From the NCBI GenBank assembly GCA_002118135.1, contig BDIU01000136.1, positions 310,001 through 374,000 on the forward strand: DNA of 64,000 nucleotides, given 5' to 3'. The position numbers and the translations under genes are program-made. A model generated the notes under the pieces. That model made no database searches and had not been told where the DNA came from. It saw only the letters and a list, made by a program, of their open reading frames with translations. Positions 1,223 through 63,285 of this stretch are shown here, piece after piece; the first letter of the stretch is position 1; each line of letters opens with the position of its first letter. This DNA comes from Trebouxia sp. TZW2008 (taxonomy: Eukaryota; Chlorophyta; Trebouxiophyceae; Trebouxiales; Trebouxiaceae).

Positions 1223-4200
1223 ATGCCGGCTGCAGTGTGGACTGTAGTCGTCAGCGGTGTTGCAGCCGAGCTGCACTCGGTGTTGTACGGTGAGACTGAC
1301 TCGGCAAGCGCAAACTGCCTATTGAGCTAGACGTGTGAGGGTCAATCATGGACTGGCAACACGGCTGCGGTCAAGTTCTTGACGCGCTTGCGGGCTCGCT
1401 GCAGGAGCTAACATGCCTGTGAATTGCTGGGGACCAAGTGTTGGCGCAAAAGCAGTTTCTTATAGAACAGCTGTCATCCTGGGCTTGCTGGGCCAGGCGA
1501 TTGGTGTGCTTGCTTTTGGACCAGAAACACACAAGGCATTTGGAGAACTTTTGGATCAACGAGATCGACTGCCTTCTCATCCAACACAGACCATGTATGC
1601 ACTCATGTGGAGCTTGGTTGTTCCTGTAGTATGGCAAATTGCGGCCATAAAGCACAACATAATGGTGCCTATATATCTTTTCTCAGGTGAGGCACACTTG
1701 CTCTGAACGGCAGGAGCATCAGTACATCTCCTGTCTGAGCATTCATATCCATCAGTCTGCAATACATCACAGGGTGAAAACGACGCTGAGCCCTTGCCAG
1801 GAGCTGATGCTGTGCATTGCATGCATGACCTGCTTTTCTGACATCGTACACCATGCTACAGTTTTACTGTCAGCAACCTGCATCTGCCTAAGCAAGCCAG
1901 GTTGTGCAACAGCACAAGCGTGAGCCACAGATTGCTGCCATCATTAGAATCACATTTGTTTTCCAACTCAATTAGGTGATCTTCTGATCTCGTGTAAGTT
2001 CCAGGAAGGCTTGCACAAAAGAACATTAGCACCCCAGGCTGCCTCTGTAGACAGAGGCTCCTGTTGTGACGCTTAATGGCGTAGAGTTTTCTTTTCTTTT
2101 TGAAACCATTGAAATTTCAATGTGTACTCAGATCAAGCCTTCTTTTTGTTTGCAGTGGCCGGCACAGTCGGAGCCATTGTGGTGTTCCCAGGCATTCCTG
2201 CACTTAATTTTGGCTACTTTGCCTCAATCAACCAGACTGGTGGTTTGGCAGCTGTCTTACTCATATGGGTCCTTGCTCTCCCAACAACAGCTCTTGTCAC
2301 GGCTGTCGCTTTTCTGTGGGCTAGAAACAATGTCTTCCGTGGTAAAGATTGCCTTCATCAAACACTCTGGGTATGTTTCTCCATTCAGTGGCATACATGC
2401 ACGCGCCATTTCTGAATGCTGAAGGTCAAACGGATCGCTTGGATTCAGGGCATGCTTCAATCTGCATTGCCAGTCTGATTGCATGCTGATTGCGAGTTTC
2501 AGATGTGTCAAGAATTTTTTCGAATACTGAATGAAAGGTTCAGCTCACGGTTCAAGAGACATGTCAGTCTACTTGCAAGATGTGTTGAGAGCTTTTGCAG
2601 CATCCTCATGTCACATCTGCTGTCAAAATCGTGTTCTTCCTTTTGCTGATTTTGCTGACAAGGTCACTTTGACACATATTCTGCAAAGTGACCTGTAACA
2701 TGCAGTTCTGGCCAGGGACGGCTTATTGGGCTGTCGTCATGTGTGGCCTGCTGCTTCTGTATGGCATCAATGACCCAGGAGGTGTCTTGCCCACATCTCG
2801 TCAGAGCATCTGCATCAGCCTTGCTGCAGTGCGCTCTGTAATCACCGTTGTGTTGTCATCTCTTCCGCAAACTCACAGGGTGACCTGTCACATGCAGTGC
2901 TGGCCTGGGACGGCCAGCTGGGCTGTCATCATGTGTGGCCTGCTGCTACTGTATGGCATCGACACACCAGGAGGCGTCTTGCCCAGATCACTGCAGGGTA
3001 TCTGCATCAGTCTTGCTGCAGCTGGCTCCGTAACCACCATCATTACCACCCTTGCAATCAAACAGGTCGCGTACCACCTCCGGACAGTTGTGAGGGAACC
3101 TGGTCCTGTCAACAGAATGAACCTGCTGGGCCTGGTAAGGCATTCGCCTCTTACAATGTTTTTCATTGCAGTACGTGGTAGGTTCAAAATTGACTTAGCT
3201 TAGCGGGCTCAGAAGCCACTATCACTACCACCCTTGCAATCAAGCAGGTGACAAACCTTCTCAGGGCGGTTGTGAGGTAACCTGGCGCTGTCAACGATAT
3301 GAACCTGCTGACCCTGGAATGCTAACATGCCTTTGTTTGACTGTGTAAACTATGTATGTGTACATGGTACATATGTATATATCATGAGTTTGACGTGCAT
3401 CCTGCAGGTTAATGTTGCATATTGTATCATATTATACATGTCACTCAGTTCTTGTTGGGGGAGCGCATGCCTGTCTTGCTGCTTGAAAGCATGACCTGTT
3501 GCCTGTCTGTGTTTGTGAACGGCTTGTCTTGCAGTGATCTGACCTGCATCACGTGGCTACTGCAGGCTTGGACCCAATTGATGGTACAGACCACACCAGA
3601 CCTCATATTGTAAAAATTTTCGGCATTTGCATAATGCTGGCGTCGGTGCTATGTCGCAGACATTACCACACCAGGGCAACCTTTGAGTCAAAGACCCATT
3701 TGATGATTTGTGCAGCAATGAGCAATACCCGCTGTGCACTCGTGAGGTCACATTGTTAATCTTCACGCTGTGCCGCTCAATTGCATTACTTGTTTGTCGA
3801 GATGTGGCGCTGCCTGGCAGCATCAATGCTTGCAAGCCGTGCAGATTGTATCAACTAAATTGAAGTCACCGTGCAGAATGAGGTCGTGCTCAGAGATCTC
3901 AGAGCGGTTGATCTGGAGCTAGACTTCAGGGAATCTCTCAGCGTCTGTACTCCCTCAACTTTGAGCTTGGATTGCACCGCAATTGTGTTTCACAGGATGA
4001 GGCTGTCCTGAAAGAGCTCAAGGCAGTTGACCTGGAGCTGGACTTCAGGGGACTCTCTCAGCGTCTCTACTCCCACTGCTTTGAGGTTGACTGCACTGCC
4101 ATTGTGAACTCCGACGAAGCCCTTCGCAACATGCACAGCTCCGCTGAGGAATTTGCAGCAACCGCAGAAAGAGCTTTCATACCATTTCAGGTCTTGCAGC

Positions 4201-7200
4201 TTTCTGCTGTGCTATCGTTGGAGCACTTTAGCTGCATGACTTTCATGCCTGGCTTATGCACACCTTGATGCTGAAAACGCCTTGATACAGTTTCATCTTG
4301 GACACACAAGCTGCTTGTGTGCTGCCTTGACATGTTCAAGTACTGCTACTAGAAAGCTCATGATGCAGTTGCACGGACACGCGTGCTTATGAGTATGGAT
4401 GGCCTGTACGATGACATGATTGGGTTTTGTGTACTACAATGCAGCTTCATGTGGGCTTTCCAAGCTCCTGCATTGTTTCCCTGTTGCCAGCCTTTGAAGT
4501 ACAAACGTAGGCATGAGGGATTGCAGTTGCTGTGATATGCCTCACCTGCTTTGTAGTGTCTGAAATATGGCAGCCAGTAGAACTCAAGAGGCATGTGAGC
4601 AATCTCAGAACAGCAATGTTTAGGCCAAACATGCAAGCAGGTCACTGTTACTGTTGACTTGCACGCACTCTGCCTGATCACAATTTGGGTCTGTGTTGCT
4701 CACTCATGCAGTGTCTGCAGCAGCAGATCTTGACCACAATCTCATGCGTGCTGCATGCAGGTCATGTTCAACTTCTTCCTGTCCATCGCCTGGGGTGCCA
4801 ATCATGGCCATCTGTCCATGCCTGTCTTTCAGATGATCTACGACATCTATATGTCAGATGCGGTTCCTGACACCATCACCATGGCATACTCCTTGCATGC
4901 TGCCAGCCTCATGGGAATGACGCTTGGCACTTTACTTTGGGGTGCTAGGCTGACTCCCATTACAGGTGAGCATCCTGACAGATCCTGACAATGTCGCCAT
5001 GGCATACTCCTTGCATGCTGCCAGCCTGATAGGAATGACGCTTTGGACTTTGCTTTTGGGTGCTAGGCTATTTCTCATACCAGGTGAGCATCTTAACAGT
5101 TTGTGATACTGTGACAATGGCATACGCCTTGAATGCTGCTAGCCTGATCGGATGACGCGTGGCATTTTGCTGTGGGGCGCTAGGCTCACTCCCATTACAG
5201 GCGAGCATCCTGTCAATTCCTGACAGTGTTACCATTGCATAATCATGCATGCTGCCCACCTAGTTGGAATGCTGCCTTGGCCTTTAGTTTGGGGGAGAGG
5301 GAGGGGGGTGGAAGGTCAGGCTGACACCAGTTACATCATGACTTGATCCGCCCTTCAGCATCACTTGGTGGCTTTGTATTGATGGACATTACAGCTGAGA
5401 TCAGGGTCCACCCTTGACATCATTTGGTAGCTTCTCTGCTGATGGGCATTCCAGCTAAACTCAGACAGAGATAGCAGACACATGGCAGACACATGGCATA
5501 GGCATAGGCTGAGGCACACCTGAACTAGTTATCTGCTCTGAGTTGTGCTGCCTGTGAGAATGCAACCTGCGTATCCTATGCACTCAGACCATATTGCAGA
5601 CTTTAATGTGCAGCTGATGTGGTCATAGCAACATATGTCGCCATACCAAAGGGCTGTTTATGTGGCTGATCAGTCAATGCAAGTATAGCTTGCTTGCATA
5701 AGGTTGTGCCATCACATGCAGTCCTCTGTCTGAAAGCCCTTTGGTCAAGCCATATGGCAATTCTCCCTAGGTGACTCATGTCTTGCCAGGTTGCGGACTG
5801 CTGCATTCATGCTTTTTCCAAGTGCAGTGCTCATCTTCAAGCATTGCATGTCATTTTACCTTCATCAACACTGTGTGCATGCTTTTGTCAGGTGTGGCAC
5901 TGGCTAAGATGAGTCCCTTCCGTAGCTTGATTGGCGTAGGCATGGCAGTGGAGGTCACAGCCTTCCTGGGGACCATCGAGCTCAAGGGAGCCGCCATCAC
6001 CTACTGCATAGTAAGCTGTGCTGTGCTGTGCTGTGCTGTGCTGTGCTGTGCTGTGCTGTGCTGTGCTGTGCTGTCAGTTTCATATTGACCTGACCAAAGC
6101 AGCGCACCGTGTTCTAGAGGCATCTGACTGTACCAACACTTCTGCAACAAGCTGTCCCTGATTGAAGTCAAGGGCGCTGCTTTCACCTACGGCGTAGTAA
6201 GGTGTGCTGTTGTCATCATGAGGTTCTGACAGTGACCAAGTCAGCTCACTCTGCATCAGTTGCAAGGTAGTTGAGTTTGTTGCCTTCCTGGGCATCATTG
6301 AGCTTCAAGGCGCTGCCATCACCTGATGCATGGTAAGCTTTGCTGTTCTGACTGTCTGACAGTAATCAAGGCAGCTATCTTGATGCTGTAGAGCACATTC
6401 TAGCTATGTCTGTACAAGTCTTGTCTTGCCATTTGATGGTGATCTTGATCAAGCTAGTTATGAAGCACTCTAGGCATATGGCTGTCCCAAAGACTGTGCA
6501 ACAAGGTGTGTTGCATTGAGCTGAAAGGCGCTGCCAAGACCTACTGCATAGTAAGCTATGCTGTTTCTTTGCTTACAACGCAACAGTACTGAGTCCTGGG
6601 TGGTCTGTACTCCTTATGATGTTGGTGGTCTGTTTTCGTTTTGATGTTGGCCAAGTCAGCTCATCTTGCATCAAACGCCTCTAGCTATGACTGTAGTCAT
6701 GCAGCAAGTCATCCATTAATTGCAAGCCTAGCAGCCAAGCAACTCATGCCTGGCAGAAACCTTCACTGTGCTATCAAGTTCACTGTTGGGCTTGTCAACA
6801 ATGCATGTTTGTTGCATGGCATTTGTTTGCAAGCTGGGTGCTGACACCAGCAGCCCTTTGTCCCTCTTGTTGCTGATGTGCAAGCCCCTGCGCTGCGCAG
6901 CATGGTTGTGATTGAGCAACAATGCTGAGCATGTGACTGTTGCCTTGACGCACAAGTCCTGCTTTCAGCAAGGTGCATGTGTGCTGTCTAAGTCCAATCC
7001 AACTTGTCTGTGAACAGCTGTGATGCTGATGTGAAAGCATGTGCCCCAGTGTGGACCACCCTGTTGTGGCAGGGCGTCTTGCAATCTTGGCAGGTGCGTG
7101 AGTGCTGGGCAGCTGTTCTGTTAATCACTACCCAGGACTGTGCAGGTGTCATCTGTTGTTGCAATTGGCATGGTGGAGGGTATAACACACGTGAACTGGA

Positions 7201-8260: not shown

Positions 8261-8649
8261 CCTCAAGACTGTCTGTATTGGTTTCTCTGTTTGTTTCCTT
8301 CTGACTCGCAGTCTGCTCAGTTCAGCCTCTGACTTGAATCTGACAGCAATCATCCCGCAGTGCAGAATTGCCATTCAATTGTCTGAGATCTGCCTATGAT
8401 GACATATGTCTCTCTGGAATGTCATTCCCTTTTTCATGGACGTTGCCTTGTTTGGCCCGTTGACATCAGATCATCAAAGCAAAGCCAAATTGGCTGCAGC
8501 TGTGAGCGGCGTGACTCATGATCAACAACGGCATTTACAGTGAAACTATTGTTTGCAAACAATGGCTGCTCATTTGTGTTGGTCTACTTATGGGCATCAG
8601 CACTACCACAAAGCAGCCAGAGTGAGACCGAGGCAAAATGACTAAAATG

Positions 8650-9720: not shown

Positions 9721-10494
9721 CCTGCCGGACGCGGCAATCTTGCCGCGTTGACCAGCCAGGCAGGTGAAGGGGGTCGGTTTTAATGCTGAAATTGTATGTA
9801 TGCATGGAGCGTTACTTTGGGTAGGGGGAGGGGGAGGGGTTGGCTGAGGGGTTATGGTGCAGCCGAGGAGTTGCTCTTGCTCTTATTGCACGTAGCTGGA
9901 GAAGTTTGGATTGCAGTGTGCTGCCCTCCAGCCTTCACACTGAGTTGTGACGCACATCTACAGTTGCACATGAGTAATGCATGATTATGCTTGCCCTCTG
10001 AGTTGCAATGTCAACACTTGACTAGCAACATTGGTATATGCATATATTGCCATATGGCACTGGTGCATGCCAGGAACACCAGCCGCATGCGGAAGAGTTT
10101 GATGCCCTCTGCTCCTCAGACAACTGCCGACTGTGCTCCGAAGGCTTCTGTCAAAGCAGTCCCTAAGCACCTTCATAGGCAGCACCAATACTGCCTGTTG
10201 AAATTGCCTTTAGACTTGTAGAGCATCATCTTGATTTGATATGTGTTTAACAGTTGGAACTGTCGATAGTGCAGGTCTGCAATAGCCATCAAGTAATGCA
10301 CGTCAGCTGCAAAAGCAATGCCTTGCCTCCAGCCAAGGATGCTGGAACGGTCATTTCCATATTGATTTGACATGTCAAGATCTTGAGGTCTAAAGCCAAC
10401 GATATGCTCAGCAACTGGGATCAAAGCCATTGCGCTGTGAGCTGCATGACATCAGTGGCAACTTCCGAGAGCAAACATCATAGAATCGTTGCAT
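9721..10494. other. Spacer between the tandem PA-domain copies
   Basis: The spacer holds a G-rich run (gtagggggagggggaggggt at about 9820-9840). It also holds a minus-strand ORF (10173-10430) with no recognised domain that could be an extra 3' exon of copy B. The presumed promoter of copy A lies at about 9730-9900. I see no other feature. Confidence 0.4.
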
Positions 10495-10520
10495 GCTTAC
10501 TTGTGTTGGTCTGCTGACTA

Positions 10521-15200: not shown

Positions 15201-18200
15201 TGTGAGCGTGCTGCGCATGCGCCAGCACAGTCGTCAGCAGATGCGCACTTAGCAGCCAATCATGTGCAGATCAGCCACTTTACGACTCACTTCTTGGACT
15301 CGCTGTCCTCAGCCTGTACAGTCCCAGAGCTCAGTAGCAAAGTGGCTGATCTGCACACTATCGGCTGCTGAAAGCGCATCTGCTGACATCTGACATCAGA
15401 GGATCGTGACCTACTGTTTGGCACGTACATGATTCACATTCTGTCATGGCTGCAATCCTGCTCAGCTTTTCGTGATTGTGCTCACTTTTGCCATGAGCTG
15501 AGTCTTGCTGACACACTGTGCATCATCAGTTACGCCTTGTGCACAGGTGTGGTTGAGCTTGAGCCCTCCATGCTGTGGAATCCTCAAGTTGTGGCTGGCA
15601 TTGGTGCAGTGCCCAACCCTACACAGCTTCACAAGGATATGCACACGTACCTGGCAGGTCAGCTTGCTGGCAATTGCAGCATAGCACAGCCGCCTCATAA
15701 CCTGTGCCATGCCCAACACTGCCACAGGAGTCATTGCTGCAGGCAGTGGTCTGTGAGGATGCAGCAGTGTGTCATGTCATATCGATGCATGCCAGCAGAG
15801 AAACTGCATGCAGAGTTGAGTTACACACCGTCAGCAAATCAATCAACACAGCCAGAGGATGCATCCACTGCTTGTTATTACATAACATGGCTATCCAAAG
15901 ACTGTGTGTGTGCTACCTGATCAAGCTGTACTGCAACAGCAAGGTCCAGTGTGCCAATGGTGATGCAGATAGTGGGGTCGATGGTGTGAAGGTAGATGTG
16001 CAAGCCACAGTGGGGCTGATGGGCTCCAAGCTGGGAGGGGGACCTGCCATGACTTCTGCATACCATCGCTCTCTGGAAACCTCAGTCAAAGCAGCCTTTC
16101 CCGGCAATCACTGCATCAACTGCATGTGCCACTCAACAGAGAACCTGTACAGGTATGGTCTGGCCACAACAGCATTAACTGCGTGGACCACTGCACAGAG
16201 AAGTGATACAGATACAGTGTGCTGTGATGCTGAGGCGACTCATGTCAGTTGTGTATGATGCACATAGACAGTCAAGGACAGTCTCATAGGCAAGCATGCT
16301 TTGGTCTAGTTCAACTGCATAGCATGTATTGTTCAGGTAATGTCTGGATTTGTATGCTTTTGACATGAGCACAGCCATACACTCACTTGGGTTGCCAACA
16401 GCAATCTAGTTGCAAATAAAGCCGTGTGTTGAATTTGTCTTGTTGGAATCCACACAGTGCATGCTTGGTGGATCCGCAATCACAGGGTGCATTGCAGCAA
16501 TTGTGTGGAAGCAGGCATGTGCAGGTTCTTCTGCAGCCATTAACGCAAAAGGGTTTTGGATCTTGCTATCGTCAGGATGGAGCACACTGTTGTAGCCAGG
16601 GTGTCTGATGGTTTCTCACCTGCACAGAGCACAATTGTGCAGCAAAGCAAGAGTAGCCAAGTATGGGTTTTGCGTGTTTCAGGATGGAGGACACAGCTGT
16701 AGCCAGGGTGTCTGATGACTTCTACCCCACAGACGCGGCCTCTTGGACCAGCCACCTGGGCATCTGTGCTTACAACTCCCTGTTCATGTCACCTCTCATT
16801 CAGGTGCAGACTACCCCACGCACAGTCTGTGCTGCTGTCGTTCTTCACGTTGTCAACAAATGTATCTTGGGCAGAAATTAGCTCTGTGCAGCTGGGCACA
16901 CAGTGACACAGAAGCACATCACCCCTGCTTTCCAAGTGTCTCCATGCCAACTGACAGCCAGCAACAGCACAGCAGACAGCACAATATATGCCAGCACAAA
17001 TTCACTTGCAGCCTCAGATCCACCACTTTCACCAACAGGCGCTTTACAGCCGCTTGCATTTTGCGTCCTGGGACACAAACAAAGAGTCCCATGCTGTTCA
17101 CCCTTTCTGTTTGACTCAATGACTTTTGTGTGGTTGCAGCCTGACTGGGCCATGTTCCATTCCAAGTACTCAGCACCGCAGCTTTGCTCTGTGCAGCACT
17201 CTTCTTGATTGCTTTTCTTGTTGTGGCTGCAGCCTGACTGGGACATGTTCCATTCCAAGCACCCAGCAGCGCTGCTGCATGCCACAGCCAGAGTCATATC
17301 AGGCTCAGGAATCTATGTCAGTGACAAGCCGGGCGCACACGACTTTGACCTGCTCAGGCGCCTGGTCCTGCCTGACGGCTCCGTCTTGAGACCCAAGCTG
17401 CCTGGCCGACCCACCAAAGACATCCTGTTTTCTGACGTGCTCAAGGACAACAAGACTTTGCTGAAGGTCGGCGGACTGTTGTCTTATTGATGTGCAGCAA
17501 TGTCTGGTGCAGGATGTTGCAAACAGCATGTAAGTGCATACACGATGTCAGACTGCTGCAAGAGAGTCAATGCCAGCGCTGGGTGTCTTCACTGCCCTGC
17601 CCGTGGTGTAGGCGCTGCTTGACACTTGAAAGCCATGTGCATCCACATTGACGATGAGCCATTATTGAGCCAAAATGTCACATGAAACCTCAAATGGCTT
17701 AAGCAGTTTGGTTTTCACACTTGGTAAGCATTTTGCACGGCTCTCACCGGAAGGCCATTGGGTGCAGATATGGAACATGAACCCAGTCAACGGTGTGATG
17801 GGTGTCTTCAATGTGCAAGGCTCCTCTTGGAGCCGCAAGAAGCGCCAATTCCACACACATGATTCTACACCGCCCACACTTCAGACCCTAGTCAGACCAG
17901 CAGATATCCAGGGCTTGACACACCCTAGCGCCACAGTCATCTCAACCCATACATTTGTCATCTACAGTGACCTCACCCAACAGCTGACCGTAGCCACCCA
18001 TGATGATGGCGTGACTGTCAGACTGGCTGCCAAGCAAAGTGATGTGCTTACAGTAGCACCTTTGTTAGGTGCTGGTAGTGATGTTCAGCTTGCTTGCATT
18101 GGCTTGGTGAACATGCTGAACGCTGGAGGTGCCATGCTGGAGGTGCACATGAATGCTGGAAGGGAGAGCAGGAAAGCAGCATCTTGTCAGGCACTTGTCA

Positions 18201-24154: not shown

Positions 24155-24196
24155 CGCGTCACATGACGTGGTCGGCATGTATTGCCAACCTTTCTG

Positions 24197-25383: not shown

Positions 25384-25535
25384 AAATTAAGTCAGCCCCT
25401 GCTTTATGGCAATGCCCCTGCTTTGGTGGCAATGTGTGGCCAGGCTATGTTACAACCAACAACCATCCCTTTGCTGAAGTGTTCATTCTGCTGCTGCTGA
25501 CTCAAGCTATCTATGCTATGCATGCTATCTATTGT

Positions 25536-25800
25536 AGGTCAGGCTCTGCTTGTTGATTGGCTTAGGCTTAGGGACATCAGGCCTGCCCTGTTTGCTGCCC
25601 TGCCCTCTTCAATATTGTGCAATAGCCTTCTTGCCAGTCCCAGACTGCCCCATGCTATCTGTTGTATTTGTAAGTCAGGCTCTGCTTGTTGATCGGCTTA
25701 GGCTTAGGGGCGTCAGGCCTGCCCCGTTTGCTGCCCTGCCCTCGTCCATACTGTGCAATAGCCTTCTCACCAGTCCCAAACTCCATGTAGTAGTTGCCTG
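25536..25800 (-). repeat. 136-bp tandem copy of the XPB 3' exon end
   Basis: The last-exon segment around aggctctgcttgttgatcgg (25677) recurs at 25541 with about 90 percent identity over some 110 bp. The copy includes the complement of the [16 protein letters not shown] coding segment and lies downstream of the stop codon. Confidence 0.8.
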
Positions 25801-39000: not shown

Positions 39001-42000
39001 CACAGTTTGACAATGCCATTGCTGCCATGCTGAGGTCTGCAAGTTTGCTTCCATACCTGACGTATTCTTGTGTAGAACTTGTAGGTGTGTATGATGTTTG
39101 GGTGCGCCAGGTCAATGCTGAGCATGGCCTCAAGCGGCTTCAAAGGAATGTCGCTGTCATCTTCTCTAGCATGCATTGCCTCTACCACCTGTATGAATAG
39201 CAGTTTGCAGCAAACTGCAGTACAGGCCTGGGTAAATGGACTGCATGCAATAGCTTTGGACAGGGGCAGAATGCCATGCAGGTGTCAGTCAGTGTACGTT
39301 GTTGCATGATGCTTTGTTTGCAGATGTCACGGGCATGCTTGCAAGGACTAGAAGCAATGATGGACTCACAAATCAACGTTCAAACTCCTTCCTGATTCAC
39401 AAAGTGTACTGATGCGTCAGCATGGTTTCTGTCACGACATTAACTTTGGGTTCTGAAGAGTTGCAAGGGACAGTGTCCGGCACAGCAATCCACTGTTGAA
39501 TTTACATACCTTGACTGCCACAGTTGCACCATTCCACGTGCCCCTGTACACATGCCCTGACCCCCCTTGACCCAGCAGGGGGCCCAGACTGACAGTTGAG
39601 AAGGGGTCCAAGTCAGCTGCAGCCCCAGTGGCTGCTGGAAACATCCCCAGGACGGCATCAATGTCAGTACTGTTCCTGAACATGCTGCCTCTGCGCTGCC
39701 TGGGCTCACAAATGGTGGCAAAGTAGAAGCTCTGGGCCACACTGTTGCCGCTGCTGTGCAGTGCAGTTGGCCTGTTATAGCAACAAGACCCAAGTCAGAG
39801 AAATACCTTGACAAACACTGTTGCCGCTGCTCTGCAATGCAGTTGGCCTGATACAGCAATAAGTTCAAATCAGACAGATACCTTGTAGAAACGACTGTTG
39901 GCGCTGCTGTGCAGAACAGTTGGCTTGTCATTGCAATAGTTCAAACTTGACAAGGTGTCTGTCTTGACAAGAAAGGTGCGTGAACACCTTTCCTGGCGCG
40001 TTCATGATATTGTGCTACATGTCATGCAACCCTTATGAAGCTGCCGATATGCAAAGTTCCACAGAACAGAGCAGCCATGAGCTCTATCTGTATCTTCAAA
40101 CATGCAGACTTTGCTCTCCATGCACATCTGACGCAGACAGTGCATGTCAAATATCCCGTGCTGACAGGATAGCTGTGTGAACAAGCTGATACCTGAATCG
40201 AATGTCCATTGTCTTGATGCTAAGCCTGTCCTCCTGGTCCAGTTGGCTGGCCAGGTGCAGACTGAAAGTGCTCTGACGGGCCGCGCTCTCCATGCACATC
40301 TGAGCTGCTGGCTGTGCCCCAATGTCAGGCACATAGAACACATCCCACAGCAGCGACTCCTCTGCATGCTCCCTGCATGAGCTCACACCAGGTCAAAATG
40401 CAAAATAGCAAGCTGCTTTTGCTGAAGAGGCTGCATGCGATTCTGTGTGCAGCTCAAATCAAGGGACAGTACTGATGTTGACATGTACAGTCAACATAAT
40501 CTTGGAGATAGCTGATGATCTGTGGTGATTGTCTAGCTGGCTTGCTGAGTATGCTTGATGACGCACAGAGCATCATTGCAGTGCAATTCATCAAGGGCAG
40601 GTCAACTTCAATTGCTGACTGATATTCTCTGTTGGCAGCCTGTTACTGTGAAATTCACTAAGCTCGCAGTCTCTTGACTAGCTGACTGGCAATGCTCTCA
40701 GACATGCTGTGCCATAGCACGGCTACTGACCTGCAGATGCCTGTGGCCTGCACCCATGCAGAGTTGACAGCCAGGATGCGCCAGTGCTGCTGGTTGCTGA
40801 TGTCACACAGCATGGTCGGCTCCTGATAGCTGTGTGTAGCATTGCACAGCGCCGCTGCATGGCTCTCAATGTAGGCCTGCTGGGCCTGGCTCCTGGCGGC
40901 TGCTGCTAGCTCCAGTTGCCGCGCTGCCATGGCTGCAAACTGCTTCAGCAGGCTGTGCTCCTGTGCTACCAACTGACGTGGCTGCATGTCCGTCACAGCC
41001 CTGCATGACATGCACCTAGCAGGGTCAAGACATCATACTGGCGAGCATGTATCATGAGGATCATGATGCAAACCGCTTTAGCAGACTGTGTTTCATGTTA
41101 CATGAGGTACATGATGCAAACTGCTTTAGCAGATTGTGTTCCTGAGCTACTCACTGGCGCGGCTGCATGACTGTCACAGCTCTGCAATGCCGTCATCTAG
41201 CAGAGTGATCGACTGTAGATTGTAGCCCGCAAATGATTGCCTGGCATGACAGCTGAAAGAACCACACTAGCAACCGTGCAATTGCGGTGAATCTGATGAC
41301 CACCGACCAGTGAACCAACAAGCAGCTGTGTAAGATGCTCAGCAGACAGAATTGAAGCTTAATCTGAAGTTTCCTGCTGTAGTTATGTTTTGATGGGTCT
41401 GACCACAGTCTTTGTTGGGCAAAGCTTGTTGAATAGAGACACACAGAGCAAACTTGACATGCTGTAGCCAGGCAACCAGCCTGATCACATATGCCACACA
41501 GTGGCAGTGACTGTATGTCACATGTGCGCTACTGCATGGGTAATGCACAATGCAGCATGGCAAGAAGATCAAGTATGGGCAAAGCAGCATAACTATTGAG
41601 TGGGCAGTGCGTGATGACAACACAGATGACTTACACTGTGCCGATGCGGAACCCACTGGAGACTACAATGGGAGCTGCAGCATAGAAGCGGATTCCAGGC
41701 TCCTTTGCAACCATTGGGTGATACTGCGACCTGCATGCACCGGCACCATATCAGCAATAAGCCCTTTGAGGTGCCTCTACAGATTTGCGGTGTCAGGCAA
41801 GTCTGCAGTTGCAGTCAAGCTAGCACAGATGTCTTGCCATGTCAAGAAGAAGCTTGCACTGAAAGGCAAGCAAGACATGGGGCATGTTGTGTAATAGCAT
41901 GCTGCACCTGGTACATGTGTCAAATCTGGCATGCAGTGGCAAAGCCATGCATATCATTGCATACCTGAAATCAGTCATGCAGTCTGAGATTTCTAAGACA

Positions 42001-44338: not shown

Positions 44339-47300
44339 TCAACTGGTCTTTGCAGCAGTCTTCTCGACAGGAGCTACCTCCCACTTGACATCTGCTTTGC
44401 CATCACCATTGCTGCTGCCAATTGGCTGCAGTTGAAGCTTTTGCTCATGATATGCAGTCAGGGTAGGTCTATGTCCGACGCTGACAATTGTCACACCTAT
44501 CTGTTTCAGTGCCTTGTACAGCAATTCCTCGTTATGGGTGTCTAGTGCGCTTGTGGCCTCGTCCATGATCACCAACCTGGGCTTGGACACAATGATCCTG
44601 TACAGCAGAATGTAACAACTCGCGTCTACGCAAGCACAGCAAGCAGTGTTGTCTGTACTGTTTGCAGTCAACAAGTGAGTGATCATGCTTGCACTGTCAC
44701 ACAGTGGATGACCAGCAGGAGTGGTTTTGATGCAGCTCTAGCATGAGGCAAAGAGTGCCATGCCAAAAAGGAGAAAGGCCTAAGATTCACCTGGCAAAAG
44801 CCAGGCGCTGTTGTTCGCCCAAGGACAGTATGCTGGCCCAGTCTGCATTTGTGTCCAAACCAGATCCCCCATTGTCAGACACCCGGTCTAGCAACGCTCC
44901 TAGCTGAACTTGCCTCAAGGCATTGCAGATGGCGTCATTTGATGGAACTGCTCTATCACTCCTAGATTCTGTTGCATCTGTGCTACGTTGAGCGCTTGAG
45001 GTCGTGTCCCTGTCAGCAACAGTGACAGGTCACAAGTTGGCTTACATCATTTGTTGAGTGGTCTGTGCACTTGTGCTCATGACAGCCTGCATTTGGTTCC
45101 AGCAGCTGCAAATCGTACTACGTGAGCACAGAGCAAAGCATGTGACTAGGAAAGTGGTTAGATCTGTATTTGGCAACCAGTAACATCTGCTGAATCAGTG
45201 CTGAGACACATTCTGGCTTGTTGAAGGTAATATCAGGAGGCTGACGAGCCTGCCAGGCCAAAATGCAGCAACTAGTGGTTGCTGCAGCATATTTATTTTG
45301 CATGAGGGGACAAGAGGCATTTGTACCCATTATCAGCCTTCTGAGAAGTATCAGGAGCCTAGTGGGTTGGAGTGTCAGAGGAGGTGGCCCAGGTGGGGTA
45401 CAGCATAGCACTACAATGCTACCGGGCATCAGAAGACAAGAGGTGTGCATACCCACTATCAGTCTTCTGAGAAGTGTCAGCCCCCTGGTTGGTGGGAGGG
45501 TCAGAGGAGTTGGCCCAGATGAGATACAGCATAGCACTACAATGCTATTGTGCATCAGAAGACACAAGGCGCGCATACCGACTATCAGCCTTCTGAGAAG
45601 TGCCAGCCCCCTGGTTGAAGGGATGGTCAGAGGAGTTGGCCCAGATGACATACAGCATAGCACTACAATGCTACTGTGCATCAGAAGACACAATGCGTGC
45701 ATACCGACTGTCAGCTGTCTGGGAAGCATCAGGCCCATGAGGAGTGGGAGGGTCAGAGGAGGTGGCCCAGGTAGGGTACAGCATAGCACTACAATGCTAT
45801 CGTGCATCAGAAGACAAGAGGTGTGCATACCCATTGTCAGCGGTCTGGGAAGCGTCAGCCCCCTGATGGGTGTGGGGGTCAGCGGAGGTGGCCCAGGTGG
45901 GGTACAGCACCTGTTCCTTTAGGCTCCCCAGCACCATGTAGGGCCGCTGCGGAACAAACATGATGTCACCATCCTGCCCAGCCGCCACCGTTTGCCCATA
46001 CCTACATGCAATGAAAACATGACGTCATTCCTGGCTGGCAGGAAATTGCTGCATGTAGTGGCTATGCAGTGACTTCATTTTGTAACAACTGCCCGGTTGC
46101 CAAGATATTTGTCCTTGTGTCAAATTGTCCTTGCTCAGAGGTGCCACAGCAGTCAGAGTGCAGTGATTGGTAATCAGTTGCATGGTCCTTGAATCAAATA
46201 TGTCCTTATGTCAAGTGTCCTTACAAAGTGAAGTTGCTGTGGTGGCAGCGTGGGTGCAGAAGTCAGCTCTTTGCAAGTGTCTGCATTGTACTTCGCAAGC
46301 AGTTGAACGCCTCAGCTGGTGACCGAAGTGGATCTGAAGCAATCTGACCAAGCAATGCTGTGAATGAGGCAAAGCGGTGCTTGCATCTGCATTGCAGACA
46401 CGTGGTACAAGCCGAGCCACAACAGTCGGGCAGACTCAGTGAGGATACAGCAGAAACATCCTTGATCTGTACTGAGGAGAGTGCCTGCAGCATCAGTTTT
46501 GAAGTCACCTGGTGATGGTGCCTGTGCCTGTGGACCAGAGCCCTGCAATGGCTCTGAGGACAGAAGTCTTGCCTACGCCGCTAGGCCCCATGACCAGAAG
46601 AGACTGCCCCTGTCGTACCTACAAAAGCCGCAGAAGTGAAGCATGCAAAGCAGGCACTAAGAAGCAGCACGCAGATGCAAGGAGAAGCCTTGCAGCGTCT
46701 GCGTGAATGTCTTATAACTTGCTTTTGCAAGGTCAGACAGCATCTGTGCAGACCATAGCAACAACTTGGTGTCAGCAAAGCATGCAAAGCAGCAGCCTGG
46801 ATGATATGTGTTGACGCCAAACTTGGCAGACAACTGCGGATGGCAAGGGGATTGCAACAGGCAGGAGGCATCACAAGATAGCAATATATGTTGTAATCAC
46901 CTGCACAGACAAGTCCTTCACCAGTGTTGAGGCCCCATCTGGCGTCTGTAATGTGACTCCCTTGAGTTCCAGCAGAACATCATCTTGCCCACTGGAACCT
47001 GAACAAGCAAAACACATAAGTACTGGCATGTTATAGCTTCATGCAATGTTGGCTCTGAATAGCGGCCGGCTGAGACATACTGTTGCAGCAGCAGCATCGT
47101 TTGCATGCTAGTGAGCTTCTGTGACCCTGCTAGGTGTGTACAGAAGCAGAAGCACCTTTGCAGGAGGGTCACATCTGGAGTTAAGTAGGGTACCTGGCTG
47201 ATCTACTAGCTGTATGAGAGATGGCTGTGAATTGCTATCAGGCACAGCTTCTGATGTACTAGTGTCTGCTGGCCTCGAAGCGGCTGATGACTCTAGGACC

Positions 47301-50254: not shown

Positions 50255-53200
50255 ATGAGTGAAGAGGGTAACAGGCAAGATGCACTGCAGCAAAAGCTCA
50301 AGAAGCTGTCTGTCAGGTGCGTTGTCATCGTTACCTTACCGACAGCCACTCAAAAACAATTAGTTAGTGCCCATAACCTGTGTGCAGAGGTCTTCAATCG
50401 GCCTGACGCAGCACCCATAGTACCCTCTCGTTCAACCCTGCATGCTGTGCCGCAGAGGTGATCAGTACAAGAAAGCGGGCCTCGATGCCGGCAGATCAGC
50501 CTCAGCACGTCGTCATCAAGTCAGCGGCTCCTGCTTCCGTATGCTGCACCAAGCAGCTCTTGCTGTATACCAATGACAAAAGGAGCTTTGATGCTTCTGC
50601 AGGCTCAGGAAGCAAGCAGAGCAACGCGTCATGCAATACTTAGATCCAAGAGATTCAGAAGAACTGCCGATGAACTGGATGAGAGCTTTGATACCACAGA
50701 CACTCAGCCAGAGTCACCACAAACCAAGATACAAAATTTGATGAAAATTGCCAGTTCCTTCACAAATGGCTTAACAGCAAGGGTAGCAGCAATGCGTAAA
50801 CTGAGACAGATGCTCAGCAGAGGTCTGATCTGTATTTCCAGCATTTCAGGCATGCAGCATTACGCCTGATCTGAACGCAGGTCTTCCGAATGAAGTTTGC
50901 AATGCAGATGATGCAGCCTTGCCACAAGCAATACAAGCTAAATTGGTCCAGTGCCTTGCTAAAGCACTTGTACTCAGGTATATCATGGTCATAAGCTGCA
51001 GCAGACTTTATCACCTGTCCAGTATTGTTTAGCTGTGACTGAGCGCCTCTCAGCTGGCGCTTGATTGCAGTGCATGCCAGCAACTTGCATAGCGTTCTCA
51101 TTCAGCTGTTGCAAGGCACGATTATTGTGAACTTTTTGGAGGCATTCAGTGTGTCTCCATGCACCTGGCAGGGGCATGCAATGTCACTGGCAAACATCTA
51201 TAGAAACGCAATGATGATGAAGCGTAGTCTCACGCAGGCAGCACACTAGCCTTGAGCTGAAGCTTGTTTTTGAGGCTGCATGGGCAATCACCAGCATGGC
51301 AGCTGGATCACATGAGAGCGTGCAAGCAGTCCTGCCGTTAGCACCAATGCTGATTGTCCTGGTGCAATCCCGCAGCAGCATGCACATTGCAGAGCAGGCT
51401 GCTTGGGCACTAGGTGAGCCATTGACGTAGCCTGCCAGTGATTGTGTGAGCACTGACAGCTTCTGCCTGCCAATGTATGCTGTCACAGCCTTTCAGCTCC
51501 GTTGCAAAGATGACACGCCGCAGATTTTGTGCTTGAGGTGCTGTCTTGCTGATTGTCCTAGCGCAGTCCCGCAGCAGCATGCACATTGCAGAGCAGGCCG
51601 CTTGGACATTGGGTGAGCCATTGTCACAACCCGGCAATGATCTTGTGAGCACTGACAGCTTCTGCACGCCAAGGCATGCTGTCACAGCCTGTAAGCCGAC
51701 TCGTAAAATGATGTGCAACAGCTTGCCTGCTTAAAGCTTTGCCAGCTTTCCCAAATAAATGTTTGGCAGCTGAGGGCAGACTCCATCTTAGACTGTGGCC
51801 TGTCTACTCATGAAAGACAACAGTCATGGCATAGTCATGTCAGCAAGCATACAAGAGGAGCCATGCTTGCTCCGTGCTGCCAATGAGTCAGCTCAAAATA
51901 AGTTTTGACAGACTGGCATGAAGTCAGCTGATGGCACCTGTATGTGCCCAGCCTGTATGTGCCTGCCTAGCAAACTTTTGTCACGAAAGAACTGTTCATT
52001 GCTGCAGGCAATATGGCTGCAGAGTCGGCAGCAGTTAGAGCTACCTTGCAGGCCAATGGAATCGCGCGACCCCTCATGCGCCTCATCTTGGCTGCTGCTG
52101 TGGACCATATTTGTGACCGCAGCACCCTGTCTGCTGCTTGCACTGCTGCTTGGGCGCTTTCTAACCTGCTTCAAGACAGCGGCAACATAGTAAGGTCACA
52201 ATGTAATGCTCTGATCGCTCATCACTTGTTGGCAATGCATTTGCTCCCGTCTGAGCATCCTCAACAACTAACCACGCAAGTTGTTCGCAAACTAATCTGA
52301 ATACTTATGAAGTGACTATCAGCATGCGCAAGTAGTCCATTTGGGCGTATGCATTATGTAGTGTCAGTTTGATGTAGCTGGCCTGTCTACTTTGGCAACC
52401 TTGCTTCAGGTCAATGAGGTGCTTGCGTTGGACAAAGGCCCAGAAGGCCTGTTGAAGGTCCTTGCTTCCAGCTCAGACACACCGCTGCTTGCTGAAGTTG
52501 CGTGGGTGTTGTGCTATGCAGCCTTCAGCCAGACCAACCTAAACAGGCTAGTGCATCTCGGCCTTATCTCAGCGATGCTTCCTCAAATCAACAGCTGCCT
52601 CCAAGAGGTAGAAGAGCTGTGATCTGTTCCGCTCCTGCGCCTTGTGTTCCGTGCAAGGCAGTGAATCAGCATCCTCTTGCTTTCAGTGCTTGATGAAATA
52701 AACCTGTGTGTATGACGTAATACATTCTGGCACCAATGTCTTGCATGCTCCACAATCTGCACTACTCTCAAACACGCAATGATTCCCTTTTGAATCCCAC
52801 AATGTCCTGTGGCTACTCAGCTTCTGGCCACCATGATTGAATGTGTCAAAGATCCTCAGCTGCCAAGCGAGTTCAAAGCAGCGCAAGCATGCGCAGCATT
52901 GGCTCAGCACCGGTTGGCGCTGAAGCAGATACCCTGAAATGAAATATAGGCAGAGGAGGAGGGTATAGAGGCCCCTTCAGTCTTGCTCAGACCCTTGTTG
53001 AGAATCACAGGCAATATTGCAGCCCTGGGAGGAAAGGAAGCATGCTCTGCTCTGATGGCAGATACTGCAAGTGAGCTGCTTCAGCAATCAAAATTTGAGT
53101 TAGTGTGCAGCACTATGAGCTACAGGGCAGATGTGCATGCATATCTTGTATCATTGGCTTTGTCCATAATTGCCTTTACATGTACGTATCTGTGCATAGC

Positions 53201-54061
53201 AACAGCACACACAACGCGATTGCAAATTCTACTCGCAAGTATGTGTCTGCGCATGGCAGGAGTGCAGCTAGCGCAATTGCAGACTTCATCAACATGTATG
53301 CATCTGTGCATGTCAACAGCACAGCTCACGCAAATGCATTTGTTGGTTGTTGGAGCAAACAAGCATGCTACCCAATTTTCAGCAAGTCCGTGTCTCATGC
53401 TCGATTTGAATCCTGCAGGCGCAACCGTACAAAAGATGATCTGTGCTTGTTTGAAATGCCAAGACCTGGGCTTGCAAGCTGAAGCTGCATGGCTATGTGC
53501 AAATATGATAGCCATGCCCAATATGTGAGTAGTCACCTGCAAGCTTGCTGCAATTTCTGACAAGCTGAAGCTTCATGGCTGTGAGCAAACATGATAGCCA
53601 TGCCCATCATGAGAGCAGCTACCTACAGGTCTGCTGTAGTTATTCACAAGCTGAAGCTGCGTGGCTGTGTGCAAACATGATAGCCATGCCCAATATGCGA
53701 GTGCTTACCTACAGGCTTGCTGCGACTTTTGACAAGCTGAAGCTGCATGGCTGTGTGCAAACATGGTAGCCATGCCTGACATGTGAGTCGCTACCTGCAA
53801 GCTTGCTGCAATTGTTGACAGGTGCATTGCATCTTGCAGCAGCTTTGAACAGGAGGCATGCATGGTTTTGGTGTTACTAATTGCATAAGGTTGTTGTGCA
53901 CTGCGCAGGCTTTCGTTTGAAAATGCGCATCGGCATAGGGGTCAGGAGGCAATTTCACATCTGCTAGAAGATCTGCAAGATGTCGCAGCAAACGGGAGCA
54001 TGTATGCAAAGCGTGAGGCTGCACTTGCCATTGATACTTTGCAGTTGATACGAGAGCACTG
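50255..54061 (+). CDS. Importin-alpha-like armadillo repeat protein with IBB-like N-terminus
   Basis: Exon 1 (50255 to about 50315, MSEEGNRQDALQQKLKKLSV) joins in phase after ccgcag to GDQYKKAGLDAGRSASARR. The next exon (from about 50608) has LRSKRFRRTADELDESF. Together these resemble the basic importin-beta-binding domain. ARM-type exons follow: about 51250-51413 (VFEAAWAITSMAAGSHESVQ, SMHIAEQAAWALG), 52008-52189 (CTAAWALSNLLQDSGNI), 52411-52607 (LLAEVAWVLCYAAFS), about 52816-52910, about 52983-53110 (PLLRITGNIAALGGKEA), about 53418-53525 (LQAEAAWLCANMIAMPN) and a last exon to TGA at 54061. The AAWAL motifs are typical of importin alpha. Such adaptors carry NLS cargo to importin beta; the divergent repeats suggest a specialised relative (TMCO6-like) and not a canonical importin alpha. 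TGTAA at 54428-54432. Confidence 0.7.
51541..51616 (+). repeat. Copy of an ARM exon end and donor
   Basis: ctgattgtcc, then gcagtcccgcagcagcatgc and gcagagcaggccgcttgg, then ggtgagcc at 51541-51616 copies 51348-51418 at about 90 percent identity. The copy includes the GTGAGCC donor. Confidence 0.8.
53474..53830 (+). repeat. 86-bp tandem repeat of an ARM exon end and donor, 4 copies
   Basis: gctgaagctgcatggctatg starts at 53478, and matching cores follow at 53564, 53650 and 53736, three intervals of exactly 86 bp. Each copy repeats EAAWLCANMIAMP-coding sequence and the following boundary (atgtgagt, atgagagc, atgcgagt, atgtgagt). The period is not a multiple of three. Confidence 0.9.
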
Positions 54062-59885: not shown

Positions 59886-60010
59886 GGGCATAAGTCTATG
59901 ACTCCCAAGTCTAAGGGCGCAAATTTATGAGGGTATAAGCTTACCAGGCCATAGGCTTCCAAGGGCGTAAACTTACAAGAGCATAAGCTTACAAGTGCAT
60001 AAGCTTGTGC
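59885..60010 (+). repeat. Short direct repeats straddling the bZIP stop codon
   Basis: cccaagtctaaggg, which includes the TAA stop, is repeated 29 bp later, with weaker copies after it. Then acttacaagagcataag and gcttacaagtgcataag form a 16-17-bp tandem. The tract makes the first 120 nt of the 3' UTR. Confidence 0.75.
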
Positions 60011-61230: not shown

Positions 61231-63285
61231 TCATTGGGTAGCTGGGGGCTGACCAGCTTTTGCCAGCTCCAAATTCTTGCTGACTTGACTCCAGTTGACA
61301 ACATTCCACCAGCTTTTCAAGTAGTCTGGCCTCTTGTTCTGGTACTTGAGGTAGTAGGCATGCTCCCAAACATCAAGCCCGAGAATGGGTGTGTGTGCGT
61401 CCTTGACAACAGCTTGCATCAAGGGGTTGTCTTGATTGCCTGCATGCAACCTCCAGCATTGCACAATGCGTGCCGTGGGAAAGGTTCTGAATGCTTGTGA
61501 CATTTGCCAAGCATCTCGTTTTATGACTGCAAAAGGTGCTGGCTATTTGTTGTGGACACACAGTCTCTGCCACAAATCATGCTGTGACTGCAGCATGTCT
61601 GTGTTGGACAAAGTATGCATTGGCATTTGATGGCGTACCACTGTGCTCCCTTCTGACAGCAAGATCGTGGTGCGGCACTCTGCACTTTGCTTTGCTACAC
61701 TATCAACCTCACATAATATGCACACTATATGCAGCAGACATCATCATGATGTCCGCCACACTTGCACAACATTGCCAGGAGACCGTCGACATCAGGCTTC
61801 AGAGCATAGGAGTTGCACACAAGACCAGTAGCATTTCTTCAGAAGAGGCATAGTTAGTGCAGTTGATACAGTTGTAGGGGACCACAACTTACTTGTGGTA
61901 GAAATGACCAACTTGCCAGAGCCATCAACACCCAGCCAGGCCCAACCAGAGCCAAAGACTGCTGCTGCCGCCTCATTAAACTTAGCCTGAAAGGCATTCA
62001 AGGAGCCCCACGCATCTTCGATGCCTTTTTTCAGTTCATCTGATGCTGCTGCCTGGTAGTCTGCCTCCTTGGACTGTGCTGGTGCAAGCACCTTCCAGAA
62101 GAAGGAGTGGTTCCAGTGACCCCCACCATTGTTTCTGACTGCTGTTGTGACGTCAGAGGGAATGTCTCTCGTGCCTACTCCTCTGTTTAGATCCTCCTGA
62201 ATACAGCAACTTGTTGAGGCACAAGATTATGCGGCGTTTATGTTGTGGACATCACAGCAAAGGAGAGGTTGCAGTGACTGCCCCTGTTGTTTCTGACTGC
62301 TGTTGTGACGTCGGAGGGGACGTCCCTTGTGCCTCCTGCCTTGTTGAGGTCCTCCTAGAAGTAGCAGTGTTGGGTTTCATTGATGTTGGACACAGCACTG
62401 CCAGCGTGATGTAGATGCCACCACTGCTCCTGAATACTGTTGAATTAACAGAAGAGTCATGACTTGCCAACTACAGCCTGAAGTCAAGGCGCCTTGCGAT
62501 GACGCCGGCGATTGTGTGCATCATTGCAACATGCACCAAGCTATTCAGCAAGCCAGGCATCAATGCCAGCAATTTATGACATTCTGCCTGTTTCTCACAA
62601 GGCAGTTTTGGGGACTGTGAAGCTAGTCAAGCCATGCAGATTGTCTCATGCGATGCTTGTGGGTCAACATGGCAGAAGGGCATCAGCAAAGGGCTAGATG
62701 ATGCCTGAAGTGCGCACCAGACTTTTGCCTTTCAAGGTAGGAGCTTGACTCAGCGCAGTCTGCAGCTTAGTCACATACGTTTGGTGGTGCTTGTCATGAT
62801 GGATCTGCATAGTGGTGGTGTCAATGTAAGGCTCCAGCGCATCCGGAGCATAAGGCAGTGGTGGCAGCTTGGAGGCGAGAGACGAGAGCTTGTCTGTGAT
62901 ACTTTCAGCATGTGCCTCGTTAACCGATGGACTGCCCTGCAGCACCCTGATTGTGATGGGCTCTGCAGTATGAGGTGCTGCGTCGGTAGTGCTTGCACAC
63001 GCTGTATGCAGGCTGGCAACAGGTCACACGGACCAGCCAGACTCCTGCTGCTAGGGTCGATGCCGCCAAAAGGCTCACGGTACGACCCATGCTGGACTGC
63101 CCCTGGGGTTGTCCGGATGGTCGATCAGCATTGGCTTTCAACGTGGCGCCTGCCGCTGACGATGCACGAAGCACGGAGGCGTTGTGGAGTCTGGAGCAAG
63201 CGGAGGACTGCGATGCAACCGTCAGCGGACTCCCGCGGAGGGCTGTCGAGGAGCCCAATCTAGAGATTGTATGCATGCTAAACAC
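61231..63285 (-). CDS. Manganese superoxide dismutase with N-terminal membrane segment
   Basis: Exon 1 (63285 to about 63020) encodes a Ser/Ala/Arg-rich presequence and a hydrophobic stretch [16 protein letters not shown]. Exon 2 (about 62941-62724) has [20 protein letters not shown] and the ligand-bearing [11 protein letters not shown]. Exon 3 (about 62202-61894) has [14 protein letters not shown] and [15 protein letters not shown]. The last exon has NQDNPLM, then [20 protein letters not shown] and WNVVNW, ending at 61231. The metal ligands (two His, then Asp and His in DVWEH) are present, and the Gly in [10 protein letters not shown] with the Gln in NQD marks the Mn type over the Fe type. 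It dismutates superoxide to oxygen and peroxide. The N-terminal hydrophobic segment recalls thylakoid-anchored Mn-SODs of cyanobacteria and suggests a plastid membrane location, which is inference. Confidence 0.9.
62186..62360 (-). repeat. Copy of the Mn-SOD exon 3 start and acceptor, 158-bp period
   Basis: The exon start (complement of [20 protein letters not shown], 62202-62143) has a diverged copy at about 62263-62356, sharing tttctgactgctgttgtgacgtc and tcctcct. The copy lies in the preceding intron and lacks a clean acceptor. Confidence 0.75.

What the first reader, a model, noticed from the sequence alone, without database searches (positions are those of the whole stretch)
2688..62360. 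Window-wide tandem duplication of splice junctions: exon ends with donors, or exon starts with acceptors, copied into neighbouring introns
Seen directly: in eight genes on both strands (phosphate transporter homologue, raffinose-synthase-like, XPB, TKL kinase, ABC transporter, importin-alpha-like, bZIP, Mn-SOD) a piece of an exon together with its splice junction is repeated one to four times next to the original. Periods range from 76 to 205 bp, and some arrays have an exactly constant period (86, 118, 126 bp). Copies are diverged, some frameshifted, many still with a splice-site consensus. Established: segmental duplication of an AGGT-containing exon stretch is a proposed route of intron gain, and exon duplication can make mutually exclusive exons. 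Inference: this lineage has a high rate of short tandem duplication that we can see at all decay stages, feeding intron growth, cryptic splice sites and minisatellites. I know of no description of such density.
Basis: partly seen in the sequence, partly recalled or inferred. Interest (0 to 1): 0.85.

Follow-up and report, generated by a model that had tools for sequence, protein, structure and literature searches.

The report
Ghost exon edges trapped in introns
In this alga-like genome many introns hold one or more dead, decaying copies of the neighbouring exon's end together with its splice site, which seem to have been made at roughly one time in the past and lengthen the introns without changing the protein.

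Summary
With self-trained gene models, 51 of 89 duplications pair an exon edge with a copy in the adjacent intron (25.7 expected by random shifts); 13 are purely intronic or intergenic (33.2 expected). Simulated uniform duplication with neutral decay gives 34-55% exon-involving pairs; 76 of 89 are seen. The intronic copies are dead: stops and frameshifts come as at random. Not all decay stages are present: divergence is nearly uniform and young pairs are almost absent, so this looks like a past pulse. AGGT intron gain is not seen: 1 of 367 introns has the signature, inside a ghost array. About half of the pairs are displaced copies with spacers that mostly show no homology, not head-to-tail repeats; multi-copy arrays show no edge bias. 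I propose short-range copying repair at exon edges, with splicing at the outermost junction trapping the inner copy. No RNA data were available, and the cause of the edge preference is unknown.

The parts
4761..4965 (+). PHO4-family transporter exon, parent of the 118-bp array; donor at 4965|4966
   Evidence: weak PHO4 Pfam match of this exon, 17.9 bits, under the cut-off; parent of copies
4983..5294 (+). three decaying copies of that exon end (4983-5083, 5099-5200, 5217-5294), inside the intron
   Evidence: 84.2, 81.6, 74.7% identity to the exon
5892..6010 (+). PHO4 exon, parent of scattered copies; donor at 6010|6011
6161..6550 (+). three decaying copies of the exon end (6161-6196, 6262-6331, 6514-6550); weak matches
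   Evidence: 30, 54, 37 bits; longer repeats
3874..3987 (+). acceptor-side ghost of PHO4 exon 3993-4190, upstream of the likely true acceptor, frameshifted
   Evidence: 80% identity; two frameshifts
17140..17183 (+). acceptor-side ghost of the raffinose-synthase-like exon that starts at 17233
   Evidence: 88.6% over 44 bp
25532..25646 (-). ghost of the XPB C-terminal coding end (parent 25668-25782), outside the predicted last exon
   Evidence: 90.4%; one stop in the copy
27680..27704 (-). donor-side ghost of XPB exon 27767-27922 (whole repeat 27613-27791, offset 89)
29660..29848 (-). XPB exon, acceptor side at 29848; parent of ghost 29968-30040
29968..30040 (-). acceptor-side ghost of exon 29660-29848
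   Evidence: 89.0% over 73 bp
30553..30744 (-). XPB exon ending ..VVPAQMFRK, donor at 30552|30553
   Evidence: joined protein aligns without a gap to Ssl2/RAD25 across this junction
30253..30427 (-). donor-side ghost (exon end 30349-30427, then intron part), three frameshifts, donor GT changed to AT; shares one intron with 29968-30040
32539..32826 (-). XPB exon, parent of four donor-side ghosts
31817..32538 (-). XPB intron holding four ghosts of the upstream exon end (32367-32450, 32255-32309, 32112-32166, 31979-32043) and one of the downstream exon start (31859-31966)
   Evidence: 367 of 722 bp exon-derived
36880..36925 (-). donor-side ghost of kinase exon 36983-37149
   Evidence: 76.6% over 47 bp
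39815..39924 (-). two acceptor-side ghosts (39815-39847, 39894-39924) of kinase exon 39507-39771
   Evidence: 93.9 and 90.3% over 33 and 31 bp
45831..46001 (-). ABC transporter exon (..FVPQRPYMVLGSLKEQVLYPTW..), parent of the 126-bp array
45327..45783 (-). four copies in the 126-bp array (each about 84 bp exon-like + 42 bp intron-like)
   Evidence: 75.3-86.7% identity; offsets 126/252/378/504
51547..51608 (+). donor-side ghost of the HMM exon 51238-51413
   Evidence: 91.9% over 62 bp
53475..53820 (+). 86-bp x4 array: exon end with donor (first copy 53475-53526 the likely parent) and three copies
   Evidence: 88-94% over 51-52 bp; the HMM did not label this exon
62260..62354 (-). acceptor-side ghost of the Fe/Mn-SOD exon 61894-62196
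   Evidence: 81.1% over 95 bp; SOD Pfam match

Best explanation
In one past period this lineage underwent a pulse of short-range copying at exon edges: a stretch of roughly 50-180 bp that starts inside an exon and runs a little past its splice site was copied in direct orientation, mostly 100-210 bp away, either head-to-tail or with unrelated filler between. The protein survives because splicing that uses the outermost junction (the first donor, or the last acceptor) removes the inner copy with the intron. The inner copy is then a dead 'ghost' that decays neutrally and leaves the intron longer. Shown: position, orientation, decay without coding constraint, near-uniform divergence, exon-edge excess. 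Inferred: that the copying was DNA repair or template switching, that splicing uses the outer sites (no RNA data), that it was one pulse, and the reason for the exon-edge preference.
For: One copy exonic and touching an exon edge: 51 of 89, 25.7 +/- 4.0 expected; purely intronic/intergenic 13, 33.2 +/- 4.3 expected (two of the 13, at 6118 and 53475, are exon-derived). In the 45 pairs with a spacer over 35 bp: 31 against 13.4, intron-only 1 against 16.4, exon-interior 2 against 9.9. Easier detection of pairs with one conserved copy does not explain it: simulated exon-involving fractions are 43% (444 of 1027) and 34-55% over five settings of large-indel turnover; observed 76 of 89. With gene models trained on the window alone, 58 of 65 pairs in the other stretches involve an exon. 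Copies are dead: 12 stops against 12.9 expected, 17 frameshifts against 2 indels of a multiple of three, in 50 pairs; splice dinucleotide intact in 41 of 49, about what a decay of 0.1 per site gives. The exonic copy is upstream for 18 of 19 donors and downstream for 20 of 20 acceptors (partly definitional). One pulse: implied true CV of exon-part divergence 0.17, codon position 3 homogeneous (chi2 41.4, df 38, p 0.32). Direct orientation only: 146 direct and 0 inverted pairs within 4 kb at 50 bits or more, 7 self-palindromes apart.
Against: Gene models outside the window are ab initio, without RNA evidence; the HMM calls some ghosts exons and misses at least one exon. The copying process proposed has no reason to prefer exon edges. 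Fourfold sites differ more (JC 0.334) than twice the zerofold value (0.113) allows, so some synonymous divergence seems to predate the copying or the decay. Divergence is not perfectly uniform (positions 1/2 p 0.035, all exon sites p 0.036), and the detection limit trims the old end. Multi-copy arrays show no edge bias, and close pairs a weaker one (14 vs 7.5; intron-only 6 vs 10.7), so not all duplications here are one thing. Intron overhangs in some pairs are long (up to 164 bp). The assembly's sequencing method is unknown, so near-identical young copies could have been collapsed.
Confidence: 0.5

Rival explanations
1. Uniform tandem duplication along genes plus visibility bias: duplications inside exons are purged, intron-only ones decay in both copies and are lost to sight, and edge-spanning ones stay visible because the exon copy is constrained.
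For: Exon copies are constrained and ghosts are not; exon parts of pairs differ less than intron parts (0.147 vs 0.192; in 23 of 32 pairs); random segments often span a junction anyway (42.6 of 89 expected). It explains why exon-interior copies are rare.
Against: Simulated with these biases it gives 43% exon-involving pairs, and 41-46% where the share of spaced pairs (0.58-0.65) matches the observed 33 of 50, 55% at most, against 85% observed. Introns show no extra instability: small-indel ratio intron-intron to exon-intron 1.64, equal sequence complexity. Spacers show homology in only 7 of 46 pairs, although simulated tandem copies do in 95-100% up to 0.2 divergence per lineage.
Confidence: 0.22
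2. Unequal exchange or gap repair between diverged alleles in a hybrid or hyperdiverse ancestor: the ghost was copied from the other parent's exon edge, where alone the two were alike.
For: Would explain one age, the excess at fourfold sites, non-homologous spacers and exon specificity at once.
Against: About 21,700 events genome-wide (extrapolated from 89 in 281 kb) seem too many for one hybrid episode; the parental divergence inferred from fourfold sites (about 0.1) would leave introns alignable; whole-genome searches with three loci found no second copy (the tool warns that a miss is not proof).
Confidence: 0.12
3. Duplicated exons serve as alternative or mutually exclusive exons.
For: Some copies are whole and open, for example the 126-bp ABC array with in-frame 84-bp units and the 192-bp PHO4-region repeat.
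Against: As a class ghosts carry stops and frameshifts at the random rate, and the matched stretch usually reaches only one exon edge.
Confidence: 0.04
4. Intron gain by tandem duplication of an AGGT-containing exon stretch (Rogers model).
For: One intron, 32112-32254, has donor and acceptor contexts alike (0.74).
Against: 1 of 367 introns of at least 120 bp, and that one is an HMM artefact inside the XPB ghost array. Older gains whose similarity has faded would not be seen.
Confidence: 0.02
5. Assembly artefact: two haplotypes or strains stitched together.
For: Uniform divergence and the lack of young pairs could reflect two haplotypes; raw reads were not available.
Against: Functional alleles would not carry stops and frameshifts or position 1/2 divergence near 0.1; differences are mostly substitutions, not read-error indels; no N in 281 kb.
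Confidence: 0.05

Closest known systems
[quoted passage not shown] not held; recalled, and seen only as cited in PMC4974935)
   Same: Short duplications inside genes that include exon and intron sequence and can alter gene structure
   Different: From memory, 8-17% of genes carry one in the six genomes studied; here about 1.7 loci per gene if there is one gene per 5.4 kb (69.1 Mb and 12,820 genes in Trebouxia 'A48'). Here they are edge-anchored, of nearly one age, often displaced, and no intron gain was detected
[quoted passage not shown] potato RdRp, PMC4974935, abstract and passages read; Drosophila cases, PMC2891723, passages read)
   Same: In potato the duplicated stretch crosses an intron-exon boundary, as here
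   Different: There a new intron arises; here the existing intron grows and the copy dies
Tandem exon duplication / mutually exclusive exons (PMC9013439, listing only; Exonize PMC12343006, passages read)
   Same: Exon-derived matches in introns, including degenerate ones, are a known class that Exonize labels intronic or inter-boundary
   Different: Partial exon edges rather than whole exons, without coding constraint; density compared only through the recalled figure above
Introners (PMC9860276, search listing and one passage read)
   Same: Genome-wide remodelling of introns; that paper reports them mainly in fast-evolving groups such as green algae
   Different: No shared element found: spacers match other places no more often than control intron pieces
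Minisatellites / short tandem arrays
   Same: The multi-copy arrays of 86, 118 and 126 bp
   Different: 18 arrays show no edge bias, unlike the single, often displaced copies

Membership tests
Internal (partial) gene duplication | two similar segments in the same orientation within one gene | tested here: met
   146 direct, 0 inverted near pairs; 51 of 89 with one exonic copy at an edge
Strict tandem duplication | copies adjoin head-to-tail; any spacer is itself repeated | tested here: inconclusive
   met for arrays and close pairs; spacer homology seen in only 7 of 46 spaced pairs
AGGT tandem-duplication intron gain | donor and acceptor contexts of an intron are duplicates of each other | tested here: not met
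   1 of 367 introns, within a ghost array
Mutually exclusive exons | both copies keep an open frame and coding constraint | tested here: not met
   12 stops vs 12.9 expected; 17 frameshifts vs 2 three-fold indels in 50 pairs
Mutually exclusive exons | either copy is spliced into mRNA | not testable with these tools
   no RNA data
Introner | introns related in sequence across genes | tested here: not met
   46 spacers: far hits for 4, near hits for 6; 46 control intron pieces: far hits for 5, near for 2 (281 kb searched). A separate dispersed family at 46107-46274 exists
Neutral pseudo-copy | copy evolves at equal rate at all codon positions while the parent is constrained | tested here: inconclusive
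   positions 1/2/3 differ 0.097/0.094/0.18 in pairs of 84% or more, as predicted; but fourfold sites exceed twice the zerofold value

The most novel reading that the evidence does not exclude
A copying process that acts specifically on exon edges: it took a splice junction with about 60-70 bp of exon and about 20 bp of intron and placed the copy about one nucleosome repeat away (offset median 161 bp, middle half 134-195; the nucleosome spacing is recalled, not measured here), at one epoch and, by extrapolation, thousands of times. Candidate causes are repair between the entry and exit points of a nucleosome positioned on the exon, or repair templated by the nascent pre-mRNA (which would also explain why all near copies are direct). 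Either would be a new, exon-directed route of intron growth.
Probability: 0.2. Interest if true: 0.85.

Novelty: new variant of a known kind. Interest (0 to 1): 0.62.

Why it matters
How introns grow without transposons is an open question. Here a visible share of some introns can be traced to the neighbouring exons (367 of 722 bp in one XPB intron), with a built-in molecular clock (constrained exon against free copy). If the density holds genome-wide, the genome offers thousands of natural tests of which of two similar splice sites is used, and of whether mutation targets exon edges.

Tried and rejected
AGGT intron gain, a shared mobile element in the spacers, extra intron instability, ghosts as used exons and read or haplotype errors (reasoned) were each tested or weighed and rejected or put low. 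Pure visibility bias was simulated twice and found insufficient; the simulation assumes one indel spectrum, ages uniform over 0-0.5 or 0.03-0.28, and my gene models. In one search multi-copy arrays were aligned at a fixed offset and gave meaningless divergences, which also enter its lowest identity bin; arrays were left out (50 of 89 pairs kept: spacing at least -5, length at least 45, exonic share differing by at least 0.2). Exons have higher GC than introns (0.547 vs 0.481); I did not test GC as the cause of the edge bias. Rfam (gathering) and tRNA scans of the window found nothing. HMM recall of 95% is not independent: the seed exons trained it. The HMM also calls some ghosts as exons (for example 29902-30040 and the 45453-45788 units) and misses the exon at 53475.
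Full report
What was given. The window is G000:C132:310001-374000 of a 68.5-Mb genome in 527 contigs; its GC is 50%. Its ABC transporter pieces match best a protein labelled jgi/Astpho2 (78% over 59% of the query); that this label means Asterochloris is recalled. The XPB pieces match moss and other green-plant proteins at up to 78%. Genome size and GC resemble those printed for Trebouxia (63-74 Mb, 49.6-51%; PMC11523091 and PMC12712428, passages). I therefore take it to be a Trebouxiales alga; this is inference. XPB, raffinose synthase, kinase and Fe/Mn-SOD are supported, PHO4 by a match just under Pfam's cut-off; importin-like and bZIP are unconfirmed.

Observation. The repeats exist where stated. 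They are not peculiar to the window: with one threshold (offset 20-600, 60 bits) the window has 21 loci in 64 kb and 22 other stretches have 57 in 217 kb, 4 of the 22 having none. Near pairs are all direct: 146 direct and 0 inverted within 4 kb at 50 bits, with 7 self-palindromes. Nonredundant loci with offset 40-400 and at least 50 bits, after masking of microsatellites, number 89 in 281 kb; later pair counts start from these.

Gene models. I trained a two-strand HMM on 2423 codons of exons recognised in the window and let it re-estimate itself on 281 kb. It gives 433 donors and 431 acceptors (introns of 45 bp or more), median exon 136, median intron 302, donor consensus [CA]AG|GT[AG]AG and acceptor TGCAG|G. 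Seed recall is 95%, but the seeds trained it. As a check, a model trained on the window alone labels 58 of 65 pairs in the other stretches as exon-involving.

Exon-edge excess. A splice junction lies in a copy in 60 of 89 loci; circular shifts give 42.6 +/- 4.0. Classified more finely, 51 of 89 have one exonic copy touching an exon edge (25.7 +/- 4.0), 5 are exon-interior (14.3), 20 both exonic (15.8) and 13 intronic/intergenic (33.2 +/- 4.3). Two of these 13 (6118, 53475) are exon-derived by homology. The effect is strongest in the 45 pairs with a spacer over 35 bp (31 vs 13.4; intron-only 1 vs 16.4), weaker in 26 close pairs (14 vs 7.5; 6 vs 10.7) and absent in 18 arrays (6 vs 5.0; 6 vs 6.3).

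Is it only visibility? A pair with one constrained copy stays recognisable longer. I simulated uniform placement, purging of duplications inside exons, neutral decay with constrained exons, the same BLAST scoring and the same HMM. 444 of 1027 detected pairs involve an exon, against 76 of 89 observed; at 84% identity or more, 151 of 358 against 23 of 26. With large insertions and deletions the fraction is 41-46% where the share of spaced pairs matches the observed one, and 55% at the most extreme setting. Intron parts show no excess instability.

The copies are dead. In 50 asymmetric pairs, copies hold 12 stops (12.9 expected if changes were random) and 17 frameshifts against 2 indels of a multiple of three. 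Codon positions differ 0.108 at 1/2 and 0.240 at 3, and intron parts 0.220. Splice dinucleotides are intact in 41 of 49 copies. The exonic copy is upstream of the ghost for 18 of 19 donors and downstream for 20 of 20 acceptors, as expected if only the outermost junction keeps the protein; part of this follows from how copies were labelled. Against a fully simple picture, fourfold sites (JC 0.334) exceed twice the zerofold value (0.113); pairs with and without stops or frameshifts show the same pattern.

One pulse. Among exon-involving pairs at 75% identity or more, 1 of 54 reaches 92%, while a constant rate gives 74 of 293 (Fisher p 1.8e-5). Exon-part divergence averages 0.152 with an implied true CV of 0.17. 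Position 3 is homogeneous (p 0.32); positions 1/2 (p 0.035) and all exon sites (p 0.036) are mildly uneven. Detection trims the old end, and collapsed near-identical repeats in the assembly could hide the youngest, though there is no N in 281 kb and perfect microsatellites are present.

Not simple tandem repeats. In 46 pairs with a spacer of at least 35 bp, only 7 spacers resemble the sequence beside the other copy; simulated tandem copies do so in 95-100% at divergences up to 0.2 per lineage and 75% at 0.25. In spaced pairs, copies end a median of 19 bp (donors, 15) or 22.5 bp (acceptors, 18) beyond the splice site and reach a median of 60 and 72 bp into the exon. Offsets of 64 exon-involving single pairs have median 161 and middle half 134-195. 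Fillers are not a shared element as far as 281 kb shows, and three loci searched in the whole genome found only themselves.

No intron gain detected. Only 1 of 367 introns has similar donor and acceptor surroundings. It lies in the XPB intron 31817-32538, which holds four ghosts of the upstream exon end and one of the downstream exon start, 367 of 722 bp. Another XPB intron, 29849-30552, holds ghosts of both neighbouring exons (204 of 704 bp). Introns with a trapped copy have median length 518 (42) against 295.5 (384).

Interpretation and standing. Shown within these gene models: dense, local, direct copies anchored at exon edges, without coding constraint, of nearly one age, in longer introns. 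Inferred: copying by repair or template switching, outermost-site splicing, a single historical pulse, Trebouxiales identity. Unknown: why exon edges. The kind (internal gene duplication) is known; density, edge anchoring, single age and displaced copies make this a new variant. I saw no description of it in the listings of eight literature searches (each lists at most 15 papers). The two Trebouxia genome papers have no 'tandem' and 0 and 1 'intron' in the main text; the Asterochloris genome paper has no 'tandem dupl' and gives 9 introns per gene. The library lacks most subscription papers, Gao & Lynch 2009 among them, so absence from print is not shown.

Noticed in passing
window 46107-46274: Intronic piece of a dispersed repeat family: matches in L022, L016, L010, L003, L018, L006, L023 at 67-79%; perhaps an old short transposon.
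   Followed up: no
window 8567-11728 (minus): Two adjacent 66%-identical gene-like stretches (8741-9773 and 10696-11728); the tested 293-aa frame has no Pfam match.
   Followed up: no
window 11796-11850, 15137-15258, 15228-15392, 39149-39268: Self-palindromes; 7 of at least 50 bits in 281 kb.
   Followed up: no
window 6015-6074 and 7418-7479: Perfect 5-bp microsatellites (GCTGT x12; TTCTG x12.4) in PHO4 introns, a few and about 140 bp after the predicted donors.
   Followed up: no
window 45327-45909: Each 126-bp unit reads as an 84-bp exon-like piece, in frame by eye, plus a 42-bp GT..AG stretch, so this array might be partly spliced in, unlike most other ghosts.
   Followed up: partly
50 asymmetric pairs in 281 kb: Fourfold divergence between exons and ghosts is about three times the zerofold one, more than a neutral copy of the same exon allows.
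   Followed up: partly
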